Made by a program: the position numbers and the translations under genes. From positions 62,001-126,000 of IMG/VR virus record IMGVR_UViG_3300018080_008188: 64,000 nucleotides of DNA; one strand, given 5' to 3'. The notes beneath the pieces are model-generated. The model was not told where the DNA came from and ran no database searches. It was given only the letters and a program-made list of their open reading frames with translations. Positions within the stretch are counted from its first letter, which is position 1. The number at the start of each line of letters is the position of its first letter. The stretch is from a virus. Shown here in pieces: positions 10,281 through 57,762 of this stretch.

Positions 10281-10299
10281 CTATCAATAAAAACGCATA
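10281..10299 (+). promoter_or_regulatory. Putative phage promoter motif upstream of the tail sheath operon
   Basis: Carries CTATCAATAA, AAA, then CGCATA, identical at 16 of 19 positions to the minus-strand copy about 50 bases away. A related copy (CTATCAATA followed seven bases later by CAT) lies at 42866 just behind a terminator. The sheath ATG is about 50 bases downstream. The motif does not match a standard sigma70 -35/-10 pair with good spacing, so a phage-specific late promoter is the favoured reading. Confidence 0.5.
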
Positions 10300-39952: not shown

Positions 39953-39975
39953 TATATCCAGCGGAGGAATTCCCG

Positions 39976-42823: not shown

Positions 42824-42857
42824 AAAAGGGACCGAGACAATCGGTCCCTTTTTTCTT
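42824..42857 (+). terminator. Rho-independent terminator ending the tail operon
   Basis: Stem AAAAGGGACCGA with TCGGTCCCTTTT (12 pairs), five-base loop GACAA, and a T-rich tail (TTTTTTCTTT counted from the stem end). It lies 28 bases after the stop of the dockerin-bearing protein. It is the clearest terminator in the window and separates the tail module from the following operon. Confidence 0.92.
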
Positions 42858-42865
42858 TACAAAAT

Positions 42866-42890
42866 CTATCAATATATTGCCATTGGATAG
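42866..42890 (+). promoter_or_regulatory. Putative phage promoter motif upstream of the RHH gene and glycan cassette
   Basis: CTATCAATA followed by seven bases and CAT, matching the core of the divergent pair at 10226-10299. It stands about ten bases behind the terminator and about 47 bases before the RHH start codon, the expected place for a new transcription start. Confidence 0.5.
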
Positions 42891-42921: not shown

Positions 42922-43089
42922 ATGACAGGAGAAAAAAAAGAACGCCGTCAGATCAACATTCGACTTGAGCGAGAACTACATGATTTTCTTGTACAATACG
43001 CTCAAGACAACTACAAGACGGTCACGGCAGTTGTCCGCGAAATGATCGCAACGCTTTACAAACAGCAGCGGAAACGAGACGAAGAGTAG
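42922..43089 (+). CDS. Ribbon-helix-helix (Arc/CopG-like) DNA-binding protein
   Basis: A 55-residue basic protein. An in-frame start at 42877 overlaps the putative promoter motif; GGGGAG placed seven bases before this ATG favours MTGEKKERRQINIRLERELH. The strand RQINIRL, then helix RELHDFLVQYAQDN, a short turn and helix TVTAVVREMIATLYKQ, fit the ribbon-helix-helix fold, in which a dimer inserts a two-stranded sheet into the major groove. It is the first gene behind the promoter motif and may repress its own operon, including the glycan genes. This regulatory role is inferred from position. Confidence 0.75.
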   Translation: MTGEKKERRQINIRLERELHDFLVQYAQDNYKTVTAVVREMIATLYKQQRKRDEE

Positions 43090-43128: not shown

Positions 43129-45417
43129 ATGAAGATAAGATGGCATGGAATGCTCGGAACAAATCATTCTTGGGCATTTGTATCTCAGGCCCTTGCAAGG
43201 GCGCAGGCGGACATGGGGCATGAAGTGTTCATGAAGTCCACGAACAGCCTGAAACACTTTCCAGAAGACCTGAAGCGGCACCTGCTTGTGGGGCACCACT
43301 GCCACCCTAAAGAGCAGAATGCGTCCAGCAACGCAACATACCTGGACGAGCACGGCAACATCCGCAAGGAGAAGTTTCCGCACCAAGGGGGACCGCCGGA
43401 TCCGCAGGACATTAACAGGCCGTACGACCTGGAAATGGCCTATACCATCTTTCCGCAAGCGGCTCGCAGGTTTTTCCGCGAGACTCCGTGTAAAATGGTG
43501 ATCTGGAATTTTGAAAGCAGCATTCTCATCCCAGGATGGCATCTGTACCATCACGCTCTCGACTACTTTCTTCCGTCGAGTCAGTTTTCTGCAGACATTT
43601 TCATCAACAATGGCGTTCCCAAAGAAAAATGCCCAGTTGTGCCGCACGGTGTATGCCTAGAGTCGTTCAATCCGGAAATTCCCCCGTTCAAACTGAAAAC
43701 CGATAAGAAGTTCAAGTTCCTACATTGCGCCATACCGCATCACAGGAAACTACATGAACGCGTTTTGGCTGCATACTTGGATGCTTTTACGGGCGACGAC
43801 GATGTGTGCCTGGTGATGAAGACAAAAATCAAGGAGCCGAGTGCGGAAAAGCCTTTTGAGGTCAATGTTGGCAAAATTCTCAACAAGGCGATGAAAGGGC
43901 GCAAAAATCCTCCTGAAATAGAAATAGTCCAGACATTTGTTCCGAACATCGGATCGCTATATACTGCGTGCGACGCCATGGTGAGCATGAGTTCCACGGA
44001 GGGGTTTCATCTTCCCAGTCTTGAAAGCATGGCATGCGGTCTTGCCGTTATCGCTCCGCGCTACGGGGGTCAGCTCGAATTCCTGAATGACGATAATGCG
44101 ATGCTAGTGGATTCTGGTGAAATGCTGGCGCCCGAAAGCATGCAGTATTGGCATTACGACAAAAAAGCTGTCGTTGGAGATCCAAATGTTTGCCACTGCT
44201 CAGAGTTGATGAGAAAACTATACGAAGATCCGTCAGCCGAACGAGCCCGCACTGCAAACGCCCGCGAAAAAACTTTGAAAAAGTTTTCCTGGGAAAACGC
44301 TGCCAGTCAAGTAATGGAAATTGCCGAAGACGCAATAGCGCGCAAAAAATCAACGCTATCGACGCCTCAAAAACGAAGCGTTATGTATGTCATTCCGTAT
44401 TCCATTGCCGGAGGGGCTGAGGTCTGGGTGCGCGAAACCATCAGGCGCCTCGATAGGAGCAGATACGAGCCAAGCATCGCATGTCCGAATGGCATGTCGG
44501 AAAGCCTAAAAAAACTATTTGCGGAAGTGGATGTTCCATGCCTCGATCTTTACAAGGAAGGCCACGGTTTTGCCCTTATGGCCCTGATTGAGTCTCAAAA
44601 GCCGAACATAGTCCATTTTCACAACAGCCTACAAGTATACAATCTCCTGCTAAAAACGCTGTACGACAGCGCCTGGTCCGGAAGGATAGTTGAAACTGTC
44701 CACAGCGATCTCATGTGGAACGACTCTATGGCCAAAGTAGCGTCCAGGAAAAATGTGTCGCTGATTATAGCCGTGTCCAACGACATGGCTCGCAAATTGG
44801 CAAAAAGGGGAAACAAGAATGTTGCGGTCCTCCCGCAGCAGGTGGACTGGGACAGGTTCAGGGTGCCGCGCAGCAGGAACATTCTGGGGGAGGCTGGAAA
44901 GTGTTTCGAATTTGTTTTCGGCACCGTGGCAAGGCTGTCTCCGGAGAAGAACATACCCCTTGCGCTGGAATGTGCAAGAAAAACGCCGGATGCGCTTTTC
45001 GTTTTTGTAGGCGGCGGAACGCAGGAGAAGGTGCTTAGGCAGATGGCTGAGTCCGGAAAGCTGGAAAATGTCATGTTCACCGGAAGGCGAAGCGATGTGG
45101 AAAACTTCTATGCCGCCTTCGACGCCCTTCTGATCACATCGCGCATGGAAGGCATGCCTCTGGTGGCCCTAGAGGCGATGTCGGCAGGCGTGCCGGTGGT
45201 GGCTCCGAAGATCGGCGCGATTCCTGAAATAGTGTCAAGCGGCAAAAACGGCATTGTTGTTAGCAAATACGACCTGCCGAGCTTCGTCTATGCTTTGCGC
45301 AAAATAAGGGAAATGAACTGGAACGACTTGTCGGCCAAGTCGAAGATGCTTGCTGAGCGCATGGAGGACATGGGCAAAAAGGTTGACATAAATAGACTGT
45401 ACGATTTGATGGGGTAA
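43129..45417 (+). CDS. Tandem two-domain GT4 glycosyltransferase
   Basis: A 762-residue fusion of two GT-B fold glycosyltransferases. Domain 1 (1-405) opens IRWHGMLGTNHSWAFVSQAL and carries an EX7E-type site at about 290 (STEGFHLPSLESMACGLAVI). Domain 2 (about 415-762) has a standard GT4 N-terminus (YVIPYSIAGGAEVWVRETIR), PNIVHFHNS, the FGTVARLSPEKNIPLALECA strand-helix, and a second EX7E site at about 671 (EGMPLVALEAMSAGVPVVAP). Two active sites suggest addition of two sugars in sequence from nucleotide-sugar donors in the cytoplasm. No membrane segment or signal is seen. It opens the glycan cassette, 39 bases after the RHH gene, with AAAGGA upstream. Specificity cannot be read from sequence. 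Confidence 0.85.
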   Translation: MKIRWHGMLGTNHSWAFVSQALARAQADMGHEVFMKSTNSLKHFPEDLKRHLLVGHHCHPKEQNASSNATYLDEHGNIRKEKFPHQGGPPDPQDINRPYDLEMAYTIFPQAARRFFRETPCKMVIWNFESSILIPGWHLYHHALDYFLPSSQFSADIFINNGVPKEKCPVVPHGVCLESFNPEIPPFKLKTDKKFKFLHCAIPHHRKLHERVLAAYLDAFTGDDDVCLVMKTKIKEPSAEKPFEVNVGKILNKAMKGRKNPPEIEIVQTFVPNIGSLYTACDAMVSMSSTEGFHLPSLESMACGLAVIAPRYGGQLEFLNDDNAMLVDSGEMLAPESMQYWHYDKKAVVGDPNVCHCSELMRKLYEDPSAERARTANAREKTLKKFSWENAASQVMEIAEDAIARKKSTLSTPQKRSVMYVIPYSIAGGAEVWVRETIRRLDRSRYEPSIACPNGMSESLKKLFAEVDVPCLDLYKEGHGFALMALIESQKPNIVHFHNSLQVYNLLLKTLYDSAWSGRIVETVHSDLMWNDSMAKVASRKNVSLIIAVSNDMARKLAKRGNKNVAVLPQQVDWDRFRVPRSRNILGEAGKCFEFVFGTVARLSPEKNIPLALECARKTPDALFVFVGGGTQEKVLRQMAESGKLENVMFTGRRSDVENFYAAFDALLITSRMEGMPLVALEAMSAGVPVVAPKIGAIPEIVSSGKNGIVVSKYDLPSFVYALRKIREMNWNDLSAKSKMLAERMEDMGKKVDINRLYDLMG

Positions 45418-45423
45418 AATCGA

Positions 45424-48400
45424 ATGAATGATATAACTCAGGGAATGTGGCGCGGACGATCGATTGGATCGAGAAGGGACAGTAGTGGCAAAAGATACAC
45501 TGTTATGCTCGGCAGATCCGCCTTAATGTTCGTTCCTATTAAAGTGGAGCCCAATTCTCAGTACAGGTTTTTTGTTGAAGCCAAGAGAGAAAGCGGAAAC
45601 GGCAAGGCGTTTTGTAACATATATTCAAACAAGAACTTCGATTTCAAGCAGGTGTATTTCGAACTGTCAGAAAGCGAATGGATGCTGTACGAGGCTGTTT
45701 TGTCCACCGGAGAATTTCCGAAATCTATGCCCATGACCTTTAGAATTTGGCGGCCAAAAGACGGTAACGGAAATATTTTCATCAGGAAAATCTCCATGGA
45801 GAAAATTGAAGACAAAGCCGTGGAAAACAGCGAGCCACCGGTTGTGCGCAAGCCTCTTGCCAGTGACCATGCTGTGGCTGTAAAATCTGTTGTAAAAACA
45901 AATACACAAACTGAAAAGCCAGAAGCCGAACCGCAAAAGCGCAGCAAAAAGAGAAGAACAAGACGCGCAAGAAGGATACATGTAGGAAGGAGGGTCGCTG
46001 GCAGGACGTCCCTAGACAAAAACAAGCAAACGGAGCCATGTAAGGTGCTGCTTGTGTCTGGGAACCAAATCTTTCTGAAAAGGCTCGGAACAGATCTCAA
46101 AAAGCTGGGGTTTATTTGCTATGCTGTTTTGCCGAAAGACGGAGTACATACCGTAGCGCAAAACATGAAGCCGGATTGGATACATTTTCATATTGCGGAC
46201 GACGCCACATCAGAATCGTCCAAAATAATGAACGGAATAATCAAGGCGTCTCCAGGCGCTGTCATAACTGCATGGTCCGACATCCCTAGCGACAGCAATG
46301 CGAAGTCTGTACTTTTGCGTGCAGATTTTGCCTTTGCTCCGGAAGAAACGCTTGAGGGCTGGAGCATAAGCGGAATCAACCCAAAGTCATGGGATGGAAT
46401 GAACGCAACTGCCATTGAATCATTCCTAGAGTCGGAGGAATGCGAAATAAAATCACCAAAATCACCAAAATCTGTCAGCTCTGCCAAGCGTGCCAATCGT
46501 GCTAGTCGTGCCAGTCATGCTACAAGCAAAATGGTCGGACGCCGGAAAATTCAACGAAAAACAGTAAAGAAGATTCTGGCCTCCATAAACATCAACGACT
46601 TCATAACCCGACACAATCGAAATGCAGACGGAATTCGGGTTTTATACCTTCCGCTGAATTCTCTGGAAATCGGGCAAATGGGTATGGAGGCAGCCTTCCT
46701 GGAAAACGGATTTTGCTTGCGGGTGTTTGATTTTCGCAACGCCGCTCGCAAATGTAGACTGGTTGACGAGGCTTTTATTCAGCAGGCGAAAGAGTTTCAA
46801 CCTCACTGGATACACATGCAGCTTCAGTTTTCCAACACAATTTCCCCTCTCACCGTGGCAAAAATCAAGGAGATGCTGCCAAACACCGTTATCACCAACT
46901 GGACCGGAGATTGCCGAAAAGAGGCGAACGGATATTTTGTCAATATTTCTGAGAAAGTAGATCTGTCGCTTATTAGTAGCGAAGGTCAGATCAACCTGTA
47001 CAAAAGGGCAGGCACCCAAAATGTGGAATACTGGCAGATAGGAGTGGACCCGGATCAGTTTCATCCTCTTTCTGAAACTGAAAGGGTCGGTCTGAGGCAA
47101 GCCTATTCGCATGATATTGCCTTTTGTGCATCAAAAACTTCCAACAGCTCCTTTCCCGCAAGCTCTCTGAGGACCAGCATTGCCCATGAGCTTAAAAGGA
47201 AATATGGAAAAAGATTCGGTCTTTATGGTCGCGGATGGGGGAGGGGCAACCGCGGCGAAGTGGGTTACTATCGACAAAACGATGTTTACAATGCATCGAA
47301 AATAGCAATTAGCGTCAACCATTTCAACAATGTCCGCATGTATTTTTCCGACCGGCAGCTAATTACCATGGCTTCCGGAGCATTAGTGATTTGCCATTAC
47401 ATCCCAGGCTTGGAGGAGTACTTTGAAAACGGCAAAGACCTTGTGTGGTTTCACACAAAAGGGGAATGCTTTTCGCTGATAGACTATTACCTACAGCATC
47501 CGGAGGAGGCGAAGCAGATCGGGACCAGGGGGGCTCAGAAAGTACTTTCGCAGCATTCGTATTCCTGTAGGGTGAGAGAGCTGGCATTGCGCCTCGGCTT
47601 CGTAAAGTCGGAACGCGGGATAGACGAGTTTCGCCCGCTGTACAGACCCGCAGACAGAAGCCTGCGGGTTATGAGTTACTATCCGAAAGCGACAAGGGAG
47701 TTCCTGTTCCGAAGAGATTTAACGGATTTGGAGCTTCAAGTTGTGCGCTGCGACCTGTTGCGAAATGCGGCTCAGTTCCAGCCCGATTGGCTACACATAC
47801 ATCTGCCAGACGGGCCTTCCGAGCTTCGCGCAAAAGAGGTTCAGGACATTCGCAGCAAAATCCCGGACATGACAATGACAGCATGGCTTTCCGACGACAT
47901 TGGAGAAAATGACAGGCTTCTATCGAAGTTCCTCGACCATGTGTTTGTAAATACGAAAGAGCAGGCTCAGGACCTTCAGGCTTCCGGAGTACAAAGGCTG
48001 GACCAGTGGCCAATGGATATACAGGATTTCAAGAACGCCGCTTTGTTTCATAGGAGGGTGACTGAAATGTCAGAAAGAATTGCCATTGGTAAGCCAAAGG
48101 GAATCCAAATCCGCCGGGAAAACCGTAACGAGCAATTCGACATGAGCATAGTGATGGGAACTTACAACCGTCTTGATATGCTGGAAAACACCGTAAAAAG
48201 ACTTTTCGACAGCGCCGGCGACCGCAAAATTGAGATCATCATCAATGATGCTGGCTCAACGGACGGAACCATCGAATGGCTTGAGGAAAATTCAAAAAGC
48301 TGTAGCATTGTGCCCATTTTTTCAGGAAAGAAGACGGGCATAACAAGAGCCTACAATGACGGTTTCAAGATAGCTCGCGGAAAATATGTGTCATGGTTCA

Positions 48401-49110
48401 GCGACGATGTTATGCCGGTTGGCAACGCCATCAAAAACATGTGCGAACTCATGGACGGGCTTGATCCGGAAGACATGGGCGCATATCCTATCCGGGATTC
48501 AAAGAATGCGCCTTTTCGCGTTCCGTTCCTGCTGGGGTTTCCCGCTCCCACGGTGGCTTGCATGTTCACCAGCACGCTAAAAAAGTACAACTACTGGAAT
48601 ACCGACTACCCGTATTACGGACAGGACAATGAAGTGAACGCCAGGGTGCTTCGCATGGGAGGCAAAATTGTTGTTTGTGACATCGCCCATGTAGACCATC
48701 TTAACAGACAGGACGATCTAAAGCATAAAAATGTAAAATCCTACTCCGCCATGGGTCATGGTCAGAAATTCCACATCATTCATTGGAGATATGGAAAGCA
48801 GGAAGAACTAATGTATCCGAAAGTGCTGCTTGTCCCTTACAATTCGGCTAATGGTGACCATGTGCTGGCGGCACTCGAAAAGCTACGCAAACACTATCTA
48901 AACGCGCACTATTTTGTATCGAAAGAAGTCGACGGAATTTGCCTTGACGAGCACGATATCAAAAACCTGTCCTTGTCTTTGCCCGAATGCGGTCCAAGCC
49001 TATTTGAACATTATGACCTTACCGTAGCGGTATATCCGGACCGCTGCGAAGTTATAACGCCAAATGACCGGGTGCGGAAGATGCGCTTTGCAAAAGAGAT
49101 GTGGAAATGA
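45424..49110 (+). CDS. Multi-domain glycosyltransferase: beta-sandwich, CgeB-like GT with repeated Rossmann units, C-terminal GT2
   Basis: A 1228-residue protein. Residues 1-125 look like a carbohydrate-binding beta sandwich (YRFFVEAKRESGNGKAFCNI). A basic linker follows (about 172-195, KRSKKRRTRRARRIHVGRR). Three copies of a Rossmann-like unit with a shared core appear at about 248 (KPDWIHFHIADD), 457 (QPHWIHMQLQFS) and 783 (QPDWLHIHLPDG), each followed by a P and a T-A/N-W strand. The second copy continues into a CgeB-like GT-B C-terminal half at about 550-735 (YFSDRQLITMASGALVICHY). From about 904 a GT2 (GT-A) domain begins (FDMSIVMGTYNRLDMLENTV), with NDAGSTDGT and a DxD-like FSDDV near 990. 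A short extra domain ends the protein. At least two transferase activities are likely. It overlaps the next methyltransferase gene by ATGA. Confidence 0.8.
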   Translation: MNDITQGMWRGRSIGSRRDSSGKRYTVMLGRSALMFVPIKVEPNSQYRFFVEAKRESGNGKAFCNIYSNKNFDFKQVYFELSESEWMLYEAVLSTGEFPKSMPMTFRIWRPKDGNGNIFIRKISMEKIEDKAVENSEPPVVRKPLASDHAVAVKSVVKTNTQTEKPEAEPQKRSKKRRTRRARRIHVGRRVAGRTSLDKNKQTEPCKVLLVSGNQIFLKRLGTDLKKLGFICYAVLPKDGVHTVAQNMKPDWIHFHIADDATSESSKIMNGIIKASPGAVITAWSDIPSDSNAKSVLLRADFAFAPEETLEGWSISGINPKSWDGMNATAIESFLESEECEIKSPKSPKSVSSAKRANRASRASHATSKMVGRRKIQRKTVKKILASININDFITRHNRNADGIRVLYLPLNSLEIGQMGMEAAFLENGFCLRVFDFRNAARKCRLVDEAFIQQAKEFQPHWIHMQLQFSNTISPLTVAKIKEMLPNTVITNWTGDCRKEANGYFVNISEKVDLSLISSEGQINLYKRAGTQNVEYWQIGVDPDQFHPLSETERVGLRQAYSHDIAFCASKTSNSSFPASSLRTSIAHELKRKYGKRFGLYGRGWGRGNRGEVGYYRQNDVYNASKIAISVNHFNNVRMYFSDRQLITMASGALVICHYIPGLEEYFENGKDLVWFHTKGECFSLIDYYLQHPEEAKQIGTRGAQKVLSQHSYSCRVRELALRLGFVKSERGIDEFRPLYRPADRSLRVMSYYPKATREFLFRRDLTDLELQVVRCDLLRNAAQFQPDWLHIHLPDGPSELRAKEVQDIRSKIPDMTMTAWLSDDIGENDRLLSKFLDHVFVNTKEQAQDLQASGVQRLDQWPMDIQDFKNAALFHRRVTEMSERIAIGKPKGIQIRRENRNEQFDMSIVMGTYNRLDMLENTVKRLFDSAGDRKIEIIINDAGSTDGTIEWLEENSKSCSIVPIFSGKKTGITRAYNDGFKIARGKYVSWFSDDVMPVGNAIKNMCELMDGLDPEDMGAYPIRDSKNAPFRVPFLLGFPAPTVACMFTSTLKKYNYWNTDYPYYGQDNEVNARVLRMGGKIVVCDIAHVDHLNRQDDLKHKNVKSYSAMGHGQKFHIIHWRYGKQEELMYPKVLLVPYNSANGDHVLAALEKLRKHYLNAHYFVSKEVDGICLDEHDIKNLSLSLPECGPSLFEHYDLTVAVYPDRCEVITPNDRVRKMRFAKEMWK

Positions 49111-49742
49111 CACAAATCAAAAAAGAATGGAAGAGCTTTTTTAAAAACTGGTCCGCCATAAACACCGTCAGGATCCAATACTGGTTTTTGAAAGAGATTA
49201 TCAAGGCAACCAATGAAGACAGTTCACTTTTGGAACTGGGAGCAGGAAGCGGCTACACATCGCTTGTTGTGCGATTCTCAAACAGGCCGAATGTTGTAGC
49301 GTCTGACATCGACTCGGAAGTCCTGAAGGGCGTCAGTGATCTTGTGCAAAACACACTGCCCGTCAAAAAGATTAACATGTTTGACACCGGCTTGCCTCCC
49401 CGATCCGTCGACTGCGTTTTCCACCAAGGCGTTCTTGAGCATTTTTCCGACAGTGAAATAGTGGCGCTTCTACATGAGCAAGGAAGAATTGCCAAAAAGA
49501 TCGTTTTTGACGTGCCCAATTCGCGCAGGTTTGACAAAACCCAGGAGCACGGGGACGAAAGATTCCTTTCCGTTCGCCATTGGAAGCGCCTGATCGTGGA
49601 AGCAGGCCTGTCCATCGAAAAGGTTGAAGGCAGAAGAATGCCAAAAATTTTCGGAATTTTACCGGCCTTTTTGGGAGAGTCCCGATGGCTTAGGAAAATC
49701 TTTGGAACATCCAGCATTTTCGTATGTAGGCGGATGTCGTGA
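49107..49742 (+). CDS. SAM-dependent methyltransferase
   Basis: A 211-residue class I methyltransferase. A GTG two codons upstream is possible, but the ATG overlapping the previous stop fits the coupling seen throughout this cassette. Motif I is SLLELGAGSGYTSLVV (about 40-55), the acidic strand end is VVASDID, and motif IV/post-I read FDTGLPPRSVDCVFHQGVLE, where HQGVLEH is typical of small-molecule and sugar methyltransferases. The target is probably a sugar hydroxyl or carboxyl on the glycan made by neighbouring enzymes; this is inferred from context. It overlaps the following GT2 gene by GTGA. Confidence 0.8.
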   Translation: MTQIKKEWKSFFKNWSAINTVRIQYWFLKEIIKATNEDSSLLELGAGSGYTSLVVRFSNRPNVVASDIDSEVLKGVSDLVQNTLPVKKINMFDTGLPPRSVDCVFHQGVLEHFSDSEIVALLHEQGRIAKKIVFDVPNSRRFDKTQEHGDERFLSVRHWKRLIVEAGLSIEKVEGRRMPKIFGILPAFLGESRWLRKIFGTSSIFVCRRMS

Positions 49743-50596
49743 AAGTGTCCATAGTTGTATCCGCATGCGACAACAGGGAAAAGCTGTTTGAGCGGTCTTT
49801 AAGATCCCTTGCAAGGCAAACTATGCCAAAAAGCGAATTTGAGGTCGTAATGGTGGACGATGCCGACCGGAAGGGTTTGCTAGATCTCTGTATGGCGGGG
49901 GCTGAACAGGGCATCAGGATACAATATATCAGAATAGACCCGTCAAAAAGCCATGTTCCGGCTGCTGCTTTTACACCAGCCTTGACAAACAATGTTGGCT
50001 TTCGCCATGCCAAGGGGAATGTCGTTGTAATTACGGGACCGGAAACGATCCATGGAAGAATGAATGTCGAAATCGCATCCCAGGTTCCAGAAAACCGCTG
50101 CGAATACGGACTTGTGTTTCGGGCCGGAAGAAAGTTTGCAGAATGGCTTGACGAACATCCTGAGCGAGCCGACCTTTCCGTCGAAAAGCTGCTAGGAGCA
50201 CCTGGAGCGCAAGAAGACTGCCGAACACGCCTTCCGCACCCTCCGGCATACTGGTACTGGATGGCTGTACAGAAAAAAAATGTCGAGGCTATCGGAGGAT
50301 GCGACGAAGAGTTCATGATGGGCATTTGCGGGGATGATGACGATTTTGCAAATCGCATGAGAATGAGCGGAGTTATTCCAGTTTTCAACCACAAAATGAT
50401 TGGAATACACCAGGACCATTCCGATACCGACAAAAATGATAACCACAGCGTTCGCTTTACCTCGAAATGGAGCGTTTTAAGAAAAATCAATCTTGCGCTT
50501 CTTCGGAAACGACTCCAGTCCGGCGACCCGGTCGCCAATCGCGACCATGTCTGGGGAAGCGCGGATACGGTGGTCAGCGCATTGGAGTTAACATGA
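49739..50596 (+). CDS. GT2 family glycosyltransferase
   Basis: A 285-residue GT-A enzyme that starts with GTG overlapping the previous stop (GTGA). It opens KVSIVVSACDNREKLFERSL, followed by EFEVVMVDDADRKGLLDLC and GNVVVITGPETIHGRMNVE. The C-terminal acceptor region includes AIGGCDEEFMMGICGDDDDF, the usual GG-x-DE-x-F motif with the catalytic-base region. It uses a nucleotide sugar donor; the specificity is unknown. The usual DxD is not obvious (TGPET stands in its place), so metal binding may differ. It overlaps the sulfotransferase gene. Confidence 0.8.
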   Translation: MKVSIVVSACDNREKLFERSLRSLARQTMPKSEFEVVMVDDADRKGLLDLCMAGAEQGIRIQYIRIDPSKSHVPAAAFTPALTNNVGFRHAKGNVVVITGPETIHGRMNVEIASQVPENRCEYGLVFRAGRKFAEWLDEHPERADLSVEKLLGAPGAQEDCRTRLPHPPAYWYWMAVQKKNVEAIGGCDEEFMMGICGDDDDFANRMRMSGVIPVFNHKMIGIHQDHSDTDKNDNHSVRFTSKWSVLRKINLALLRKRLQSGDPVANRDHVWGSADTVVSALELT

Positions 50597-51387
50597 CTAA
50601 GATGTTTTTCGGCTTTGGGCACGGATTCGGAGGAACGCATCTTCTGGCTGATATGCTGGATGCCGTTCAAGGGGTGGATTGTAAGCATGAAAGGATTTGC
50701 CCGGAATCTCCACACGGCATGTTTACGCATTATTTGGCCGTGTATCGCGGCGAAAAAGACCCAAAAGAGATTGTGCTGGAAGAAAGGGCACCACTTGTCC
50801 GTCGAGTTTTGGCTTCGGGGAAAGTTTTCGGAGAAATCAACGGTCAGCTCGGCTTTTATGTCGGGGGAATTCATGATGTGTGGCCGGATGCCAAGTTCAT
50901 ATACATGACAAGGAATCCTAGGGAACAAATACGCACTTCTTTCAACACTGGCATGTTCGACTACGAAAACCCCATTTTCAAAGGCAGGAACCTGTGGTGG
51001 TGGCCGAAACCAAGACCGGACGATCCGTATGCCGACAAATGGGAATGCATGAGTGTTGTTGAAAAATGCGCATGGATGTGGGTTTTTGTAAACGACTTTT
51101 TTATGGAGCAAATGAAACGGATTCCCGAAAATCAGATTTTCCATTACCGCTTTGAAGAAATGATTGCCGGTCGGAATTTTGACGAACTCTGCGATTTTCT
51201 GAATATCAACAGGGCAAACCGGAAAGAGATTACAAGGATCGTTTCGAAAAAAAGGGCAAAAACAGCCATTCGCGCAACAGCTCCGCTCCCCCCATGGGAC
51301 GAGATGGATTCGAAAACCAAAAAGTCGATTGCCGACATAGCCGAAAAAACTGCCACGAAAATTGGATACGGAGGATTACATGCTTGA
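50593..51387 (+). CDS. PAPS-dependent sulfotransferase-like protein
   Basis: A 264-residue protein. The frame is open well upstream, but the ATG overlapping the previous stop (ATGA) puts the 5'-phosphosulfate-binding loop at residues 5-15 (FFGFGHGFGGTHLLADML), as in sulfotransferases. The 3'-phosphate-binding segment is KFIYMTRNPREQIRTSF at about 98-114. The later block (MSVVEKCAWMWVFVNDFF and YRFEEMIAGRNFDELCDFLN) is also typical of bacterial sulfotransferases. It would move sulfate from PAPS to a hydroxyl, here presumably on a sugar, in the cytoplasm. It overlaps the following methyltransferase gene by eight bases. Confidence 0.75.
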   Translation: MTKMFFGFGHGFGGTHLLADMLDAVQGVDCKHERICPESPHGMFTHYLAVYRGEKDPKEIVLEERAPLVRRVLASGKVFGEINGQLGFYVGGIHDVWPDAKFIYMTRNPREQIRTSFNTGMFDYENPIFKGRNLWWWPKPRPDDPYADKWECMSVVEKCAWMWVFVNDFFMEQMKRIPENQIFHYRFEEMIAGRNFDELCDFLNINRANRKEITRIVSKKRAKTAIRATAPLPPWDEMDSKTKKSIADIAEKTATKIGYGGLHA

Positions 51388-52081
51388 ACCGGAAAAGGCG
51401 TTCTCGTCAGAAAACTACCAGAGAGTGAACCGTGCGCGGCTTGACCATCTTGAATCGCTAGGTCTGGATCTTGAATCCAAAACCGTACTTGAGGTTGGAG
51501 CTGGCATTGGCGACCTGACACAATTCTTCATCGACCGCGGATGTTCAGTGACAAGCACGGAGGGAAGACCAAGCAACTATGATGTGCTGAAAAAAAGGTT
51601 TCCAGAGATCGATACCATGGTCCTAGACCTGGAAAACACCCCAAAAACATGCCCGTTTTCGGAAAAGTTCGACATCGTTTTTGCCTACGGAATTCTTTAC
51701 CATTTGGGAAACCCGGCTCAGGCGCTGAAATACCTTTCAGAACTGACTAAAGGTATTTTGTTGGTGGAAACGCATGTGGCATTCGGAGAAATGGACGAGG
51801 TGAAGCAGTGCGAAGACATATTACATGACCCGACGCAAAGCGTAAGCGGCAAAGCGTGCCGGCCGACTAGACAGTGGGTTTTCAACCGTCTGTCAGAAGC
51901 CTTCGACCATGTGTACCTTCCAATTACACAGCCGAATCACCCAAGGCTGTATCCGGAAAATTGGAAAACCATTCCGAAAGGCAAGCCTTTGGCAAGGGCG
52001 GTGTTCGTTGCTTCAAGGGAAAAATTGTCAAACCCGCGCCTTGTAAGTTCTGTTCCCATGGAACAGAAAAGGCTGGGATGA
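51380..52081 (+). CDS. SAM-dependent methyltransferase
   Basis: A 233-residue class I methyltransferase. GGAGGATTAC directly before this ATG decides the start over one six codons upstream. Motif I is TVLEVGAGIGDLTQFFID (about 35-52), followed by VTSTEGRPSN at the SAM ribose position and FDIVFAYGILYHLGNP at motif IV. The YHL and the later ETHVAFGEMDEV stretch resemble FkbM/Methyltransf-type enzymes acting on small substrates. Probably a glycan-modifying enzyme in this cassette. Its end overlaps the next methyltransferase (ATGA). Confidence 0.8.
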   Translation: MLEPEKAFSSENYQRVNRARLDHLESLGLDLESKTVLEVGAGIGDLTQFFIDRGCSVTSTEGRPSNYDVLKKRFPEIDTMVLDLENTPKTCPFSEKFDIVFAYGILYHLGNPAQALKYLSELTKGILLVETHVAFGEMDEVKQCEDILHDPTQSVSGKACRPTRQWVFNRLSEAFDHVYLPITQPNHPRLYPENWKTIPKGKPLARAVFVASREKLSNPRLVSSVPMEQKRLG

Positions 52082-52683
52082 GCGCAGGGACCGTGGAGAG
52101 ACCTATGAAACTACATATCGGATGCGGCACAATTTATCTCAAGGACTATGTGAACATAGACGGCAAAGCCGATTTCATGGCAAACAACTGTCCTGCGGAT
52201 GTCATGGAGAAGGTCGCAACCACTTTGGACAGGTATTACAAGCATCCTTTCGGTCATGGCGCGAAAAAGGTCGTTGTCGACGCGCAGTTCGATATTGGTG
52301 GCGCTTTTCCGTATCAAAGCGGAACAGCTGAGGAAGCCGTAATGATGCATGTGCTTGAGCACTTTCCGCTTTACAGGGTGGGAGGCGTCCTGGAAGAGAT
52401 TCGGCGCGTTTTGAAACCCGGAGGGGCTTTCGTGGTAGCCGTGCCGGATGTCAAGGGAATGGCCAAAATGCTTGCGGAAGCAGAAACGCCAGAAGAGGAA
52501 GATCTTGCCATTCGGTTCATACACGGAACGCAAAGGAACGAGTATGCCCATCACCTGTGCGGGTACACTCCGCGCACATTGAAAAGTCTTCTGTCCGAGC
52601 ACGGGTTTGGAAAATTCCAAGAGCTTCCGAACATAAACTGCTATCCGGCCGTTCACTTGAAAGCGCACAAGATAGGTGACTGA
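52078..52683 (+). CDS. SAM-dependent methyltransferase (Methyltransf_11-like)
   Basis: A 201-residue protein. The start overlapping the previous stop (ATGA) is used; a second ATG nine codons later, preceded by GGAGAG and opening MKLHIGCGTIYLKDYVNIDG, is equally plausible. Motif I is LHIGCG, the ribose-binding acid is in YVNIDGK, motif IV is EEAVMMHVLEHFPLYRV, and the following RRVLKPGGAFVVAVPDVKGM is typical of this superfamily. The C-terminus (CGYTPRTLKSLLSEHGFGKF) is common in sugar-cluster methyltransferases. It is the third methyltransferase of the cassette. It shares a base with the following fucose synthase gene (TGATG). Confidence 0.8.
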   Translation: MSAGTVERPMKLHIGCGTIYLKDYVNIDGKADFMANNCPADVMEKVATTLDRYYKHPFGHGAKKVVVDAQFDIGGAFPYQSGTAEEAVMMHVLEHFPLYRVGGVLEEIRRVLKPGGAFVVAVPDVKGMAKMLAEAETPEEEDLAIRFIHGTQRNEYAHHLCGYTPRTLKSLLSEHGFGKFQELPNINCYPAVHLKAHKIGD

Positions 52684-53615
52684 TGAAAGTTGTTGTAACT
52701 GGAGGAACCGGCTTCCTCGGACGACATTTGGTTCGCGAACTGGAAAACCGCAACATGTACGCCCGTGTCCTGGACAGGGCGGGCGGGCCGGGACTGATTG
52801 ATAAATCGTGGGCGCTTGAGCAAATTGAAGAAGAAAAGCCGGACGCCGTGATTCATCTGGCTGCCAAGTGCGGCGGAATCGGCGCAAACATGGCGAAGCC
52901 CGGAGAGTTCTTTCGCGATAACCTGCTTATGGGCGTCCACCTAATAGATGCCTGCCGGAAGCTCGATGTGCCCAAGACCGTTGTGGTTGGGACCGTCTGC
53001 TCATACCCAAAGTTCACATCGGTTCCGTTCCGGGAGGAAGATATCTGGGACGGATTTCCAGAAAAAACGAATGCACCATATGGAGTCGCCAAGAAGGCAC
53101 TGCTTGTCATGCTCCAGGCATACCGCCAGCAGTATCTCATGAACGGCATCTATCTGATTCCGGTCAATCTATTCGGACCCGGAGACTGCTTCGACCCAAA
53201 CAGGTCTCATGTGATTCCTGCGCTTATTCTAAAATTCTGGCAGGCCAAACAGCGTGGCGACCGGTCGGTCACATGCTGGGGAACTGGAAGCGCATCCAGG
53301 GAGTTTCTGTATGTCGAGGACGCTGCTCAAGGAATAACAGACGCTCTTGAGCAATACGACGGATCAGATCCCGTCAACCTAGGCAACGGACGCGAGCATA
53401 CAATTGCCGACCTGTCCGAGACCATCAAACGCATTGTCGGGTTTAAAGGGGAGATCGTGTGGGACAACACCAAGCCGGACGGGCAGCCCAGAAGGTGCCT
53501 TGACACATCAAAGGCAAAAGAGCTTTTTGGTTTTGAAGCCGCAACTGATCTGGAGGACGGTCTCAAGAAAACCTATGAATGGTTTCTCCAACAACCAATG
53601 GGATGCGGGTGCTGA
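52683..53615 (+). CDS. fcl: GDP-L-fucose synthase-like NAD(P)-dependent epimerase/reductase
   Basis: A 310-residue extended SDR enzyme. It has the GxxGxxG nucleotide-binding loop (VTGGTGFLGRHLVREL), HLAAKCGGIGANMAKPGEF as in GDP-fucose synthases, the catalytic VGTVCSYPKFTSVPFREED stretch with its conserved Cys, the Y-x3-K pair in PYGVAKKA, and a downstream histidine in DPNRSHVIPALI. It would convert GDP-4-keto-6-deoxy-mannose to GDP-L-fucose using NADPH. The GDP-mannose dehydratase making its substrate is the next gene. A related GDP-sugar epimerase cannot be fully excluded, but the pairing is strong support. Confidence 0.85.
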   Translation: MKVVVTGGTGFLGRHLVRELENRNMYARVLDRAGGPGLIDKSWALEQIEEEKPDAVIHLAAKCGGIGANMAKPGEFFRDNLLMGVHLIDACRKLDVPKTVVVGTVCSYPKFTSVPFREEDIWDGFPEKTNAPYGVAKKALLVMLQAYRQQYLMNGIYLIPVNLFGPGDCFDPNRSHVIPALILKFWQAKQRGDRSVTCWGTGSASREFLYVEDAAQGITDALEQYDGSDPVNLGNGREHTIADLSETIKRIVGFKGEIVWDNTKPDGQPRRCLDTSKAKELFGFEAATDLEDGLKKTYEWFLQQPMGCGC

Positions 53616-53616
53616 C

Positions 53617-54606
53617 ATGAAAAAGACGGCTTTGATAACCGGGGTGGCGGGTCAGGATGGGTCTCATCTTGCCGATTTTCTGCTTGAAAAGGGATATCAT
53701 GTTATAGGGGTAATTCGCAGGAATGCGACCAGAAACCTGGAAAATGCCTCCCATCTGGAAAACCTGATCGACCTGGAGGAGGGGGACATCACCGACATGG
53801 CATCCATGCTGCGCATCATTCAGAAAAGCAGACCGAACGAACTCTACAGTCTAGCTGCGATGAGCCATGTACACACCAGTTTCGAGCAGCCGATCGCCTC
53901 GTTCCAGATTGATGCCATGGGCGTTGTCAACATTCTTGAAGCGGTAAAAACTCTTGGATACAGCACGCGCATCTTTCAAGCCAGCACTTCAGAACTGTGG
54001 GGCTCCTCTCCTCCGCCGCAGAATGAGGAAACCATCATGCGCCCGCGCAGTCCGTACGCCATCGCCAAGCTGGCAGCGCATTGGATGGTTCGTCTGTACC
54101 GCGAAGCTTACAACATGTACGCTTGCTGCGGCATTACTCATAATCATGAAGGTTGCAGAAGAGGCCCGTTGTTCGTCACGCGCAAGATCTCAATGGGCGT
54201 TGCCAGATGCTTGAAAGATCCGTCTTTCAAACTGAAGCTCGGAAACCTTGACGCCGCCAGAGACTGGGGGCACGCAAAAGACTTCGTCGAGGCTTTTTGG
54301 CTTATGCTACAACAGGAAAAACCAGATGATTATGTCATAGCGACCGGCGAAATGCATACTGTGCGCGAATTTGCTGAAAAGGCCTTTTCATGCGTTGGTC
54401 TTGACTGGCAAGACCATGTTGAAATTGACCGATTTCTGAAAAGACCGATCGAAGTGGAATCGCTTTGCGGAAATCCGGAAAAAATCAAGAACGAGCTTGG
54501 ATGGGAGCCGGAAACAAAATTCGAAGACCTTGTGAAGCTCATGGTAAAGCACGATTGCCGGCTTCTGGGGGTGTGGCCGGACGATGAGAAAAATAGCGAG
54601 AGGTAG
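53617..54606 (+). CDS. gmd: GDP-mannose 4,6-dehydratase
   Basis: A 329-residue SDR enzyme. The frame is open upstream, but this ATG directly after the fucose synthase stop opens MKKTALITGVAGQDGSHLAD, the standard Gmd start with its Rossmann loop. Other family marks are ELYSLAAMSHVHTSFEQPIA, the catalytic STSELWGSSPPPQNEET with T/E, PRSPYAIAKLAAHWMVRLYR with the Y-x3-K pair, and HNHEGCRRGPLFVTRKI, nearly as in bacterial Gmd. It converts GDP-D-mannose to GDP-4-keto-6-deoxy-D-mannose. No enzyme making GDP-mannose is seen in this window, so the host probably supplies it. Confidence 0.92.
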   Translation: MKKTALITGVAGQDGSHLADFLLEKGYHVIGVIRRNATRNLENASHLENLIDLEEGDITDMASMLRIIQKSRPNELYSLAAMSHVHTSFEQPIASFQIDAMGVVNILEAVKTLGYSTRIFQASTSELWGSSPPPQNEETIMRPRSPYAIAKLAAHWMVRLYREAYNMYACCGITHNHEGCRRGPLFVTRKISMGVARCLKDPSFKLKLGNLDAARDWGHAKDFVEAFWLMLQQEKPDDYVIATGEMHTVREFAEKAFSCVGLDWQDHVEIDRFLKRPIEVESLCGNPEKIKNELGWEPETKFEDLVKLMVKHDCRLLGVWPDDEKNSER

Positions 54607-54608
54607 GC

Positions 54609-55397
54609 ATGGCAAAAGTCGGAATCTACCTTCCGGCATACAATGCTGGAAAGTACATAGAAAGAACAATCAACAGCATCAAAGCTCAGGAAATGCGCGA
54701 CTGGCAGCTTGTCCTGATAGACGACGCTTCGGACGACGACACCTTCGACAAGGCAGCGAAGGCCGCCGAAGGCGACCCGAGGATTTCGGCGCACAGGGAG
54801 GAAGAGCACTGCGGCCTGATAGGAAAGCTGAAAAACAAGTGTATTTCCATGCTGGACCAGAGCGAATACATTTGCCATGTCGGAGCGGAAGACCTGATTC
54901 CTCCGTATTGTCTGCGCATTTTCTGCCAGGCCATGGACGGGTCCCCTCATGTCGGAGCCGCTTGCGGAACATTCGTTGCGTTCGACAACCAAGGAAAACA
55001 GTGGCAGTTTCCGCATGTTGTCAGAGACAAGGGTTTCAGCAGTGAAAGGCTTATGAGATACATGTGTATGTATCCGCATAGGTTTTACCGCAGGGCAGTT
55101 GTGGAGAAAGTCGGCGGATACTCCGATGAGCTTTCGTCGGCCGTTGATTACGATCTGTCTCTGAGGCTGGACGAGACGACAGCTATCATGCGCCTTGAAA
55201 AACCCGTGACATACTATTACCGGCAGCACATGGAACAGGTGTCGCGCAGAGACCGCGTTCAGCAGGATGCCAATGCAAAAAAAGCCCTGCAGGATGCGAT
55301 AGATAGGCGCGGGCTTGATTTGAAAATACAGAATGACGCCCCTCCGTTCGTTCTTTCCAAAAAGCAGCCTGAGCATTTCATATGGGGAAAGAAATGA
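54609..55397 (+). CDS. GT2 family glycosyltransferase
   Basis: A 262-residue GT-A fold enzyme opening MAKVGIYLPAYNAGKYIERT, then WQLVLIDDASDDDTFDKAAK, the classic GT2 nucleotide-binding start. HVGAEDLIPPYCLRIF stands at the DxD position (AED), and RAVVEKVGGYSDELSSAVDY with DYDLSLRL is the acceptor-side motif with probable catalytic base. It is about the length of single-domain GT2 enzymes and has no membrane segment. Fucose or another sugar may be the donor; this cannot be decided. It overlaps the SDR-like gene by ATGA. Confidence 0.85.
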   Translation: MAKVGIYLPAYNAGKYIERTINSIKAQEMRDWQLVLIDDASDDDTFDKAAKAAEGDPRISAHREEEHCGLIGKLKNKCISMLDQSEYICHVGAEDLIPPYCLRIFCQAMDGSPHVGAACGTFVAFDNQGKQWQFPHVVRDKGFSSERLMRYMCMYPHRFYRRAVVEKVGGYSDELSSAVDYDLSLRLDETTAIMRLEKPVTYYYRQHMEQVSRRDRVQQDANAKKALQDAIDRRGLDLKIQNDAPPFVLSKKQPEHFIWGKK

Positions 55398-56221
55398 AAA
55401 AGAAAATTCTGGTGTGCGGATCCGCCGGGTTCCTGATGTCGAATTTTATGAGGTACATGATGTATCGAGACAATCAGCGGCAATACGACTTCGCAAGCGT
55501 CGACTGCCTTGCGGAACCGGCAGACATCAAGCGCGTTTACATAAACAGAAGACACAGTTTCCACATAGGCAATGTGCGCGACAAAGAATTCATGGAACGC
55601 GTCATGTATGTCGAAAAACCAGATTTCATCGTGAACGGCGTTGGCTGCGCAAAAGGCGAGGTAGACATCGCCCGCTCAGTCTTCAAATCTACATTTTCAC
55701 TCTTGGAATCATGCCCAGAAAATGCCATGGTTGTACAGGTTTCTCCTAGGAAAGACATGCAGCGCATAGGGCATGAAGCCATGGACTATTGGGATATGAC
55801 ATCGTCGATCGTACAGAACAAGAGAGGCGCGAACATGCGCATTCCAAGATCGTTCGGCTTCAGAGACAGGCATGGAATGCTGGCGAATGTAATCAAGGCA
55901 GCCCTAGCTACAGAAAAACCGCAGTTTTTGAGCAACAGCAAAGAGCCGATGGCGTATGCGGAGGATGTGGCATCCAGAATCTGGTTCATTATAGAAAACG
56001 CAATGCGCGGAGAAATTAACATGCCGAGTTTGGGCTTGGTCAGCAGTGAGCAGATGTATGCTTTGTGTAACAAGGAATCTGGAATCCATGATGTTGAGTA
56101 TGATAAAGATTTCGGGTGTGCTGAAAAATCTGACGACGGATGGGCAGCTGATTCAGAAAGCGTAGAACATGCTCTTATAAAAACAATTAAGTGGTTTAAC
56201 ATAAACAAATGGGCTTTATAA
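55394..56221 (+). CDS. SDR-fold nucleotide-sugar epimerase/dehydratase-like protein with altered active site
   Basis: A 275-residue protein. ATG overlapping the previous stop and preceded by GGGGAAAG is chosen; an ATG four codons upstream is also possible. It opens KKKILVCGSAGFLMSNFMRY, a GxxGxxx loop in which the third glycine is replaced (GSAGFLM), then FASVDCLAEPADIKRVY and VEKPDFIVNGVGCAKGEVDI as in dTDP-glucose dehydratase relatives. The usual Y-x3-K pair is not found; DYWDMTSSIVQNKRG occupies the region. Later segments (RIPRSFGFRDRHGML, YAEDVASRIWFIIENAMRGE) keep the family layout. It could be a sugar enzyme with different chemistry, or an inactive partner. It is the last gene of the cassette. 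Confidence 0.65.
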   Translation: MKKKILVCGSAGFLMSNFMRYMMYRDNQRQYDFASVDCLAEPADIKRVYINRRHSFHIGNVRDKEFMERVMYVEKPDFIVNGVGCAKGEVDIARSVFKSTFSLLESCPENAMVVQVSPRKDMQRIGHEAMDYWDMTSSIVQNKRGANMRIPRSFGFRDRHGMLANVIKAALATEKPQFLSNSKEPMAYAEDVASRIWFIIENAMRGEINMPSLGLVSSEQMYALCNKESGIHDVEYDKDFGCAEKSDDGWAADSESVEHALIKTIKWFNINKWAL

Positions 56222-56325: not shown

Positions 56326-57762
56326 ATGAATGACAAAAAACCCGTTAATCGAGTGGTGGTTACGGATGCGATCGGCGAAGTTGAAAGAGTAAAATCCGAT
56401 GCTGAAATTATCAGGGAAAACGAAGAGCTTGAGGCATCCCTCAAGGGCGGGGATAAAAAGGAGGCACCCTTGGACCCTGAAGTGCTTGCTAAGCTGCGTG
56501 AAAAGCGGGAAAAGAAGGAGGATGAGCAGATGACCAGGGCCGTTGCCAAGCGGGACAGGAGCCTGTATTTCGGAGTGGTCGGGCTGGGTCAGGCAGGATC
56601 GCGGATAGCCGAGACATTCTACGAGATGGGATACGAGGCGTGCGCCATGAACACGGCTACGCAGGATCTGGAGTTCATAGAGCTGCCCGAGAACCGCAAG
56701 CTGTTTCTGCCGTACGCCCTGGGCGGCGCAGGCAAGGAACTCGACAACGGGCGGGCGGCCATCGAGCAGAACGCTGATGCTGTGACGAGCAAGATGGGCG
56801 AGATTTTCGGAGACGACCAGGAGGTGTTTATCCTGGCTGTCAGCGGCGGCGGGGGAACCGGAAGCGGCGGAGCGGAAGCCATGGTGAGCTTGATGTCGCA
56901 GATGGGAAAGCCGGTTTGCGTCATATATGTGCTACCTATGGATTCCGAGGACTCGCTGAGCAAGCACAACGCGGTGACGACGCTCGGGAAGCTCGCCAAG
57001 ATGGCTAGCGAGAACATCGTGTCCACGCTGATAGTGGTGGACAACGCCAAGATCGAGCTGATCTATCCGGGACTCAGCAAGGCGGAGTTCTGGAGCACGG
57101 CCAACAACGCCATCGTGGCTCCGCTCCACCTGTTCAACCACCTGTCAGCCATGCCTACGCAGTACGACAGCCTGGATTCCATGGATTTCGGGCGCCTGTT
57201 CCTGGGCGGCGACTGTTCGGTCTACGGGATGATCGAGGTGGAGAATTACATGGAGACTACCGCCATCGCGGAGGCCGTGCTGGAGAACCTGAAGGGCACG
57301 CTGCTGGCAAGCGATTTCGATCTGAGGGAGGCGCGCCTCGGAGGCTTCATGGTGACGGGAAGCCCGGAGGTCCTCAGGGAGCTTCCTGCCGAGAACATCC
57401 ATTACGCCCAGAACATGATCAGCGAGGAGTGCGATTACGCCCAGCTGGTCAAGGGCGTGTACGAGCTTCCGATCGAGGAGGACGTCGTGCGCGTGTACAC
57501 CATGTTCAGCGGGCTCGGGCTTCCGTCGGCGCGTGTCGACGCCCTGAAGGACGAGGCGATGCAGCAGATGAGCCATGTGCGCGAGAAGGAAAAGACCCGC
57601 GCGTCGAGGATGTCGGTGGACTACGGAGCCGGCACCGAGACCCAGAACAAGGCTCAGGAAGTGCGCAGGATGATAGCGCAGAAGAAGTCCAGTTTCGGCA
57701 AGCTGACCACCAATGCAATGAAGCGCAAGCCAAAGGGAGTGGTGGATCGGAGAAAGCGATAA
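56326..57762 (+). CDS. Tubulin/FtsZ-family GTPase
   Basis: A 478-residue protein with AAGGAG eight bases upstream. Residues 1-78 are a charged extension predicted helical. The GTPase core starts at about 80: LYFGVVGLGQAGSRIAETFY (the FtsZ T1 region), ACAMNTATQDLEF (T2-like), then the tubulin signature SGGGGTGSGGAEAM at 173-186 (T4 G-box). VVDNAKIELIYPGLSKAEFW corresponds to the NDxL region and helix H6-H7. SLDSMDFGRLFLGGD (about 282-296) matches the FtsZ NxDFADV T7 loop, with D287 as the probable catalytic acid. The C-terminal tail is strongly basic (KLTTNAMKRKPKGVVDRRKR), unlike the usual acidic-hydrophobic FtsZ tail. Likely a phage filament for positioning DNA or replication sites (PhuZ or TubZ-like role), by analogy only. 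Confidence 0.85.
   Translation: MNDKKPVNRVVVTDAIGEVERVKSDAEIIRENEELEASLKGGDKKEAPLDPEVLAKLREKREKKEDEQMTRAVAKRDRSLYFGVVGLGQAGSRIAETFYEMGYEACAMNTATQDLEFIELPENRKLFLPYALGGAGKELDNGRAAIEQNADAVTSKMGEIFGDDQEVFILAVSGGGGTGSGGAEAMVSLMSQMGKPVCVIYVLPMDSEDSLSKHNAVTTLGKLAKMASENIVSTLIVVDNAKIELIYPGLSKAEFWSTANNAIVAPLHLFNHLSAMPTQYDSLDSMDFGRLFLGGDCSVYGMIEVENYMETTAIAEAVLENLKGTLLASDFDLREARLGGFMVTGSPEVLRELPAENIHYAQNMISEECDYAQLVKGVYELPIEEDVVRVYTMFSGLGLPSARVDALKDEAMQQMSHVREKEKTRASRMSVDYGAGTETQNKAQEVRRMIAQKKSSFGKLTTNAMKRKPKGVVDRRKR

What the first reader, a model, noticed from the sequence alone, without database searches (positions are those of the whole stretch)
43129..56221. Eleven-gene glycan synthesis and modification cassette inside a phage genome
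Seen: eleven consecutive + strand genes, most joined by ATGA, GTGA or TGATG overlaps. They encode four glycosyltransferase polypeptides with at least six transferase domains, three methyltransferases, one sulfotransferase, the Gmd/Fcl pair and one SDR-like protein. Known: Gmd and Fcl make GDP-fucose. Inference: the phage builds a methylated, sulfated, probably fucose-containing glycan. Likely targets are its own tail or capsid proteins (the cassette follows the tail genes and starts behind the same promoter motif), or host surface polymers to block superinfection or change host binding. No flippase, polymerase, priming membrane transferase or signal peptide is seen, which argues for cytoplasmic glycosylation of protein or nucleotide-linked acceptors rather than classical capsule export.
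Basis: partly seen in the sequence, partly recalled or inferred. Interest (0 to 1): 0.85.

Follow-up and report, generated by a model that had tools for sequence, protein, structure and literature searches.

The report
Glycan-building island behind jumbo-phage tail genes
This giant bacterial virus carries, right behind its tail genes, its own set of enzymes for building a methylated, sulfated, probably fucose-containing sugar chain; the same slot is filled with different sugar enzymes in dozens of related giant phages, so it most likely decorates the virus's own tail.

Summary
All 11 plus-strand genes at 43129-56221 are real. Pfam, motifs and a fold match support four glycosyltransferase (GT) polypeptides with at least six domains, three methyltransferases, a PAPS-type sulfotransferase, Gmd, Fcl and an SDR that lacks YxxxK. 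A twelfth gene, a ribbon-helix-helix regulator at 42922-43089, was missed. An intrinsic terminator and a promoter-like motif precede it.

The window is part of a 134-kb fragment of an uncultured jumbo myovirus. In close relatives (301-340 kb) the same order recurs: terminal tail protein, motif, regulator, two-domain GT4, variable sugar genes, tubulin. One relative has homologs of all 12 genes, as diverged as the tail genes. As an independent test, contigs were found with the tail protein as bait: all 40 with at least 5 kb downstream carry the GT behind it, often 10-90 bp away. Islands run from about 3 to 40 kb. Two relatives encode APS kinase (PAPS supply). No flippase, initiating phosphoglycosyl transferase or cassette membrane protein was found.

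Best explanation: a lineage-wide, hypervariable cytoplasmic glycosylation island that decorates the virion tail, working like chlorovirus glycosylation. The acceptor is unproven. Phage sugar clusters are known (cyanophages); this fixed, tail-linked form is a new variant.

The parts
39949..42795 (+). Terminal tail protein ('tailB', 948 aa) with a dockerin-type Ca-binding repeat pair; conserved left border of the island; candidate acceptor
   Evidence: Pfam Dockerin_1 E 2e-11; homologs in 61 viral contigs; dockerin loops kept in most homologs
42824..42852 (+). Intrinsic terminator ending the tail operon
   Evidence: 12-bp stem with 6 GC pairs and T tail
42864..42874 (+). Promoter-like motif ATCTATCAATA
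   Evidence: AAATCTATCAATA just upstream of the RHH gene in G000, G004, G005 and G006; CTATCAATA also upstream of the tail sheath at 10281
42922..43089 (+).
   Evidence: 56-71% identical homologs at the same place in G004 and G005, 60% in G006; RHH assignment from the sequence pattern, no NCBIfam match
43129..45417 (+). Two-domain GT4 glycosyltransferase; its first domain is the only cassette part found in the whole lineage
   Evidence: Pfam; 51-60% identical in G004-G006; N-terminal domain in 40/40 testable relatives
45424..49110 (+). 1228-aa protein: N-terminal carbohydrate-binding-module-like beta sandwich, GT4-like domain, C-terminal GT2
   Evidence: Pfam; model of residues 1-152, pLDDT 84, Foldseek CBM16/CBM4; two separate genes in G006
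49101..49742 (+). SAM methyltransferase 1
   Evidence: Pfam Methyltransf_11; 51% identical in G006
49739..50596 (+). GT2 glycosyltransferase
   Evidence: Pfam Glycos_transf_2; 44-54% identical in G004-G006
50593..51387 (+). PAPS-dependent sulfotransferase
   Evidence: Pfam Sulfotransfer_3 E 1e-8; fold match to TPST2 with PAP, E 2e-6, probability 1.0; 51% identical in G006
51380..52081 (+). SAM methyltransferase 2
   Evidence: Pfam Methyltransf_23; 54% identical in G006
52105..52683 (+). SAM methyltransferase 3
   Evidence: Pfam Methyltransf_23; 50-53% identical in G005 and G006
52683..53615 (+). Fcl/GMER-like GDP-4-keto-6-deoxymannose epimerase/reductase
   Evidence: Closest solved structures are GDP-L-fucose synthases, E 2e-62; C106, Y133, K137 and H176 invariant
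53617..54606 (+). GDP-mannose 4,6-dehydratase (Gmd)
   Evidence: PDB GMDs E 2e-98; TSE, YxxxK and RR motifs invariant
54609..55397 (+). GT2 glycosyltransferase
   Evidence: Pfam Glycos_transf_2; 50-55% identical in G004-G006
55382..56221 (+). Degenerate SDR without YxxxK; last island gene; RmlB-like with STDE and YxxxK in several distant phages
56326..57762 (+). Phage tubulin/FtsZ-like GTPase; conserved right border of the island
   Evidence: Pfam Tubulin E 7e-15, PHROG PhuZ; found in 10 of 13 virus records searched

Best explanation
This is the glycan island of an uncultured jumbo-myovirus lineage, a fixed genomic slot between the last tail-protein gene and a tubulin gene. Shown: slot, borders, gene content and conservation. 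Inferred: the pathway. The cassette is expressed from its own phage promoter under an RHH regulator. Host GDP-mannose is turned by Gmd and Fcl into a GDP-6-deoxyhexose, most likely GDP-L-fucose. The lineage-wide GT4 starts or completes a core sugar on a virion protein in the cytoplasm, most likely the neighbouring tail protein. The CBM-carrying GT4/GT2 protein and the two GT2 enzymes extend it. Three methyltransferases cap it and the sulfotransferase adds sulfate from PAPS. The conserved GT plus a swapped set of outer-sugar genes gives each phage a different virion coat, comparable to a serotype locus.
For: Tail-protein-first test: 61 viral contigs, and all 40 with at least 5 kb downstream have the GT behind tailB, 10-90 bp away in many distant relatives, so probably one operon there. 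Tubulin is the right border wherever it was found near the island. The motif-RHH-GT head is conserved in four phages. The motif also stands before the tail sheath gene. G006 has all 12 genes at 34-65% identity against 54-57% for the tail genes, so they diverged together. G006 and G004 encode APS kinase (G006 copy confirmed). No flippase or initiating phosphoglycosyl transferase in 11 records, with positive controls, and no TM segment in the cassette. The chlorovirus precedent has Gmd/GMER, soluble GTs and cytoplasmic capsid glycosylation (PMC5408694).
Against: No direct evidence of glycan on any virion or of which protein accepts it. No recognised protein-glycan initiating enzyme family. Cytoplasmic GTs could also act on host lipid-linked precursors and use the host flippase. 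In this window a terminator separates the cassette from tailB, so it is not simply the tail operon. Cyanophage clusters with similar enzymes were interpreted as host-surface genes. Shared position could reflect a tolerant insertion site.
Confidence: 0.58

Rival explanations
1. The enzymes remodel the infected host's surface polysaccharide, using the host's own lipid carrier and flippase, to block superinfection or change adhesion.
For: Standard reading of similar jumbo- and cyanophage clusters (PMC7824862). The variety of deoxy and amino sugars resembles O-antigen loci. G004 and G005 add RmlA, RmlB and aminotransferase homologs. Absence of export genes could mean that host ones are used.
Against: No flippase, polymerase, initiating enzyme or membrane GT seen. 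Invariant position behind a tail protein in 40/40 and the promoter-like motif shared with the sheath gene fit virion assembly better.
Confidence: 0.28
2. The island is a passenger: sugar genes collected at a tolerant site, of little use to the phage.
For: Contents vary from about 3 to 40 kb. LPS clusters in cyanophages were discussed as possible 'stuffer DNA' (PMC3037559).
Against: All ORFs open and homologous at about 50% identity in G006. Regulator, promoter, GT and borders conserved. Divergence equals that of the tail genes. APS kinase kept elsewhere in two genomes.
Confidence: 0.06
3. The transferases glycosylate phage DNA (base hypermodification) against restriction.
For: Phage GTs commonly do this, and it was suggested for GTs of 'moraphages' (PMC12619734).
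Against: Thymidylate-synthase-type base-modifying enzyme only in G004 among the phage records (other routes not searched). Sulfotransferase, Gmd/Fcl and CBM-GT do not fit. Tail linkage. This record is incomplete, so not excluded.
Confidence: 0.05

Closest known systems
Cyanophage LPS/glycan clusters (P-SSM2, S-SSM7, S-SM2, ACG-2014f)
   Same: Gmd, nucleotide-sugar epimerases, GTs, a methyltransferase, an annotated sulfotransferase and a neighbouring tail fibre gene in ACG-2014f NC_047713
   Different: Sporadic and placed near hli03/phoH (PMC3037559). The sulfotransferase here has no phage-collection match and neither does tailB. No tail-tubulin slot or RHH head is annotated there.
Chlorovirus PBCV-1 capsid glycosylation (virus-encoded GMD/GMER, soluble multidomain GTs, methyltransferase)
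   Same: Self-contained cytoplasmic toolkit: GDP-fucose enzymes, soluble GTs, methyl capping (PMC5408694)
   Different: Eukaryotic NCLDV, capsid target proven; here a tailed phage with sulfation and an unproven tail target
Mycobacteriophage virion glycosylation (Freeman et al. 2023, cited in PMC12619734)
   Same: Glycans on capsid and tail tube subunits (as stated in PMC12619734)
   Different: Primary paper could not be read here; from general knowledge, no such large sugar-synthesis island there
Moraphages (PMC12619734)
   Same: Jumbo aquatic myoviruses with four core GT orthogroups and variable islands
   Different: No tubulin, epimerase or sulfotransferase mentioned in the main text; membership of this phage could not be tested

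Membership tests
Phage-encoded glycan biosynthesis cluster | Several GTs plus nucleotide-sugar and tailoring enzymes, contiguous in a phage genome | tested here: met
GDP-L-fucose pathway | Gmd with catalytic TSE and YxxxK | tested here: met
   best NCBIfam model is gmd, but 372.6 bits lies below the equivalog cut-off of 415
GDP-L-fucose pathway | Fcl/GMER with Cys, Tyr, Lys and His active-site residues | tested here: met
   best NCBIfam model is GDPFucSynFcl, but below cut-off; product not assayed
PAPS sulfotransferase | Sulfotransferase fold and PAPS-binding motifs | tested here: met
   Foldseek to PAP-bound TPST2; 3' phosphate-binding type motif R-x-P-R conserved with G006, 5' loop (GHGFGGTHLL) atypical
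Wzx/Wzy-type capsule or O-antigen locus | Flippase (PF01943) and initiating phosphoglycosyl transferase (PF02397) | tested here: not met
   0 of 11 records, controls positive
Cytoplasmic virion glycosylation (PBCV-1-like) | Soluble virus-encoded GTs and sugar enzymes | tested here: met
Cytoplasmic virion glycosylation (PBCV-1-like) | Glycan shown on a virion protein | not testable with these tools
   needs purified virions
DNA hypermodification | Base-hydroxymethylating thymidylate-synthase-like enzyme | tested here: not met
   only G004 among the phage records has a Thymidylat_synt match; own record incomplete
Moraphages | Placement in TerL, MCP and PolB trees | not tested
   reference sequences not available here

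The most novel reading that the evidence does not exclude
A whole lineage of jumbo myoviruses encodes an autonomous cytoplasmic pathway that puts a methylated, sulfated deoxyhexose glycan on its own tail. A lineage-wide core transferase and a swappable 3-40 kb outer-sugar island act as a virion serotype locus, the bacteriophage counterpart of chlorovirus capsid glycosylation.
Probability: 0.42. Interest if true: 0.82.

Novelty: new variant of a known kind. Interest (0 to 1): 0.62.

Why it matters
Sugar-gene clusters in phages have been left open as host-surface modifiers or stuffer DNA. A fixed slot tied to the tail in all 40 testable contigs, with conserved promoter, regulator and core transferase and swappable outer genes, is strong evidence of function and points to the virion. 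It turns the old question into a direct mass-spectrometry test, and it suggests antigen-like variation and sulfated coats in phages, relevant to host recognition, defence evasion and phage clearance.

Tried and rejected
Nucleotide search of the phage collection: no match. First tubulin-based scan of viral contigs: nothing confirmed. Recent host passenger: rejected by synteny and equal divergence. Export-type capsule locus: rejected, no flippase or initiating transferase. DNA glucosylation: thymidylate synthase only in G004. Cohesin partner for the dockerin: none found. Sulfotransferase: no PDB hit by sequence, resolved by fold; no phage-collection homolog; a viral-contig scan found only G006. 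Host: one related contig sits in a Chitinophagales MAG, but this may be binning, so no host is claimed. tRNA and Rfam scans of the window were empty.
Full report
WHAT THE WINDOW IS. The window is bases 62001-126000 of a 134,081-bp IMG/VR virus record without end repeats, probably a fragment. The record encodes portal, major head protein and a head-protease-like protein, tail sheath, tape-measure-like protein and a baseplate wedge, so it is a myovirus. Relatives of its tail genes sit on contigs of 300-340 kb. The annotated phage collection holds only weak tail matches (25-34% identity over 14-28% of the protein) and none for the terminal tail protein. So this is a jumbo-phage lineage without a close relative in that collection.

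OBSERVATION. Eleven + strand genes run from 43129 to 56221 with overlaps or very short gaps. Gmd aligns end to end with solved GMDs (E 2e-98) and keeps TSE, YxxxK and RR. Fcl is closest to GDP-L-fucose synthases with C106, Y133, K137 and H176 invariant. Both score below NCBIfam's equivalog cut-offs, so GDP-L-fucose is likely but a related GDP-6-deoxyhexose is possible. The sulfotransferase is weak by sequence, but its model (pLDDT 76) matches PAP-bound tyrosylprotein sulfotransferase and other PAPS sulfotransferases with probability 1.0. The first 130 residues of the 1228-aa protein form a beta sandwich like carbohydrate-binding modules. The last SDR lacks YxxxK in this phage and in G004-G006.

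A 55-aa ribbon-helix-helix-type gene (42922-43089) heads the cassette. A strong terminator (42824-42852) ends the tail operon. A promoter-like motif AAATCTATCAATA follows it. The same motif-RHH-GT head stands in G004 (302 kb), G005 (340 kb) and G006 (318 kb). CTATCAATA also lies upstream of the tail sheath gene. Inside this window alone the motif count is not impressive (2 against 0.41 expected); positional conservation is the evidence.

THE ISLAND. Using the first GT as bait, 12 viral contigs were found, and in all 12 it lies behind homologs of the terminal tail proteins. Because that bait could bias the result, the tail protein alone was used as bait next: 61 contigs were found, and all 40 that reach at least 5 kb downstream carry the GT (a few are near-identical phages). 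In many distant relatives the GT starts only 10-90 bp after the tail gene. The right border is the tubulin gene. GT start to tubulin start is 13.2 kb here and about 14, 17, 18, 18.5, 22, 34 and 40 kb in others. The smallest islands, about 4 to 6 kb from tail gene to tubulin, hold a GT4, often a GT2, a protein with a hydrophobic N-terminus, one further gene and an SDR that still has STDE and YxxxK in several phages. This suggests that the degenerate SDR here is a relic of an ancestral dehydratase. A 383-kb contig binned with a Chitinophagales genome shows the tail protein, GT, small cassette and helicase in the same order, without tubulin there.

CONSERVED AND VARIABLE PARTS. G006 has homologs of all 12 cassette genes, at 34-65% identity, in nearly the same order, while its tail genes are 54-57% identical. 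The cassette has therefore diverged with the phage backbone and is not a recent import. G004 and G005 keep the head and tail of the island but add homologs of RmlA, RmlB, a sugar aminotransferase and (G004) a FdtA-like isomerase, plus other GTs (RmlA and aminotransferase models; the RmlB and FdtA readings are by inspection). More distant phages carry other sets, including Gmd at 45-50%. G006 and G004 encode APS kinase elsewhere in the genome (the G006 copy passes the NCBIfam cut-off), which would supply PAPS. G006 has the sulfotransferase; G004 has a sulfotransferase-like P-loop protein by inspection only, and PF13469 did not score in it.

MECHANISM. Shown: gene order, borders, conservation, family and fold assignments, absence of Polysacc_synt flippases and Bac_transf initiating enzymes in 11 records with positive controls, and absence of TM segments in this cassette. 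Inferred: cytoplasmic glycosylation of a virion protein, most likely the neighbouring tail protein, started by the lineage-wide GT, extended by variable GTs, methyl-capped and sulfated. The chloroviruses give the working model (PMC5408694). The main rival is remodelling of the host surface with the host's own export machinery, the usual reading for cyanophages (PMC7824862). The position argument favours the virion but does not prove it.

NOVELTY. Phage sugar clusters are not new. ACG-2014f cyanophages have Gmd, epimerases, GTs, a methyltransferase and an annotated galactose-3-O-sulfotransferase near a tail fibre gene, and P-SSM2-type clusters were described as possibly functional or stuffer DNA (PMC3037559). 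Moraphages have four core GT orthogroups (PMC12619734). A 2026 jumbo-phage review does not mention glycosylation or glycans (PMC13282480). New here are the fixed tail-linked slot across a lineage, the conserved regulator and promoter head, co-divergence with tail genes, PAPS supply, and the swap of outer-sugar genes around one conserved transferase.

LIMITS. The host is unknown, the own record is incomplete, only two proteins were modelled, and no phage of the lineage is known to be in culture, so the acceptor and sugar identities are predictions.

Noticed in passing
58027-60579: The helicase gene has an in-frame insertion of about 350 aa (roughly residues 126-476) absent from the G005 homolog, placed at the Walker A region; looks like an intein.
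   Followed up: partly
L073:693-2879 (G004): The G004 Gmd gene is interrupted by about 390 in-frame codons near the TSE active-site motif; part of the insert resembles a segment of a 901-aa protein of the window's record; looks like an intein in a Gmd.
   Followed up: partly
39949-42795: The terminal tail protein carries dockerin-like Ca-binding repeats, kept in most homologs; no cohesin was found in the phages searched.
   Followed up: partly
L099:6581-7885 (G006): An adenylosuccinate-synthetase-like gene lies near the phage APS kinase.
   Followed up: no
L147, L149, L152-L155, L161, L163, L168: The minimal islands all hold a protein of about 330 aa with a hydrophobic N-terminus and no clear Pfam match.
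   Followed up: no
L096-L098 (G014): The 40-kb island also holds GlmS-like, asparagine-synthetase-like and other non-glycan genes, judged by eye.
   Followed up: no
56326-57762: A phage tubulin gene is the right border of the island in most relatives; phage tubulins are known from nucleus-forming jumbo phages.
   Followed up: partly
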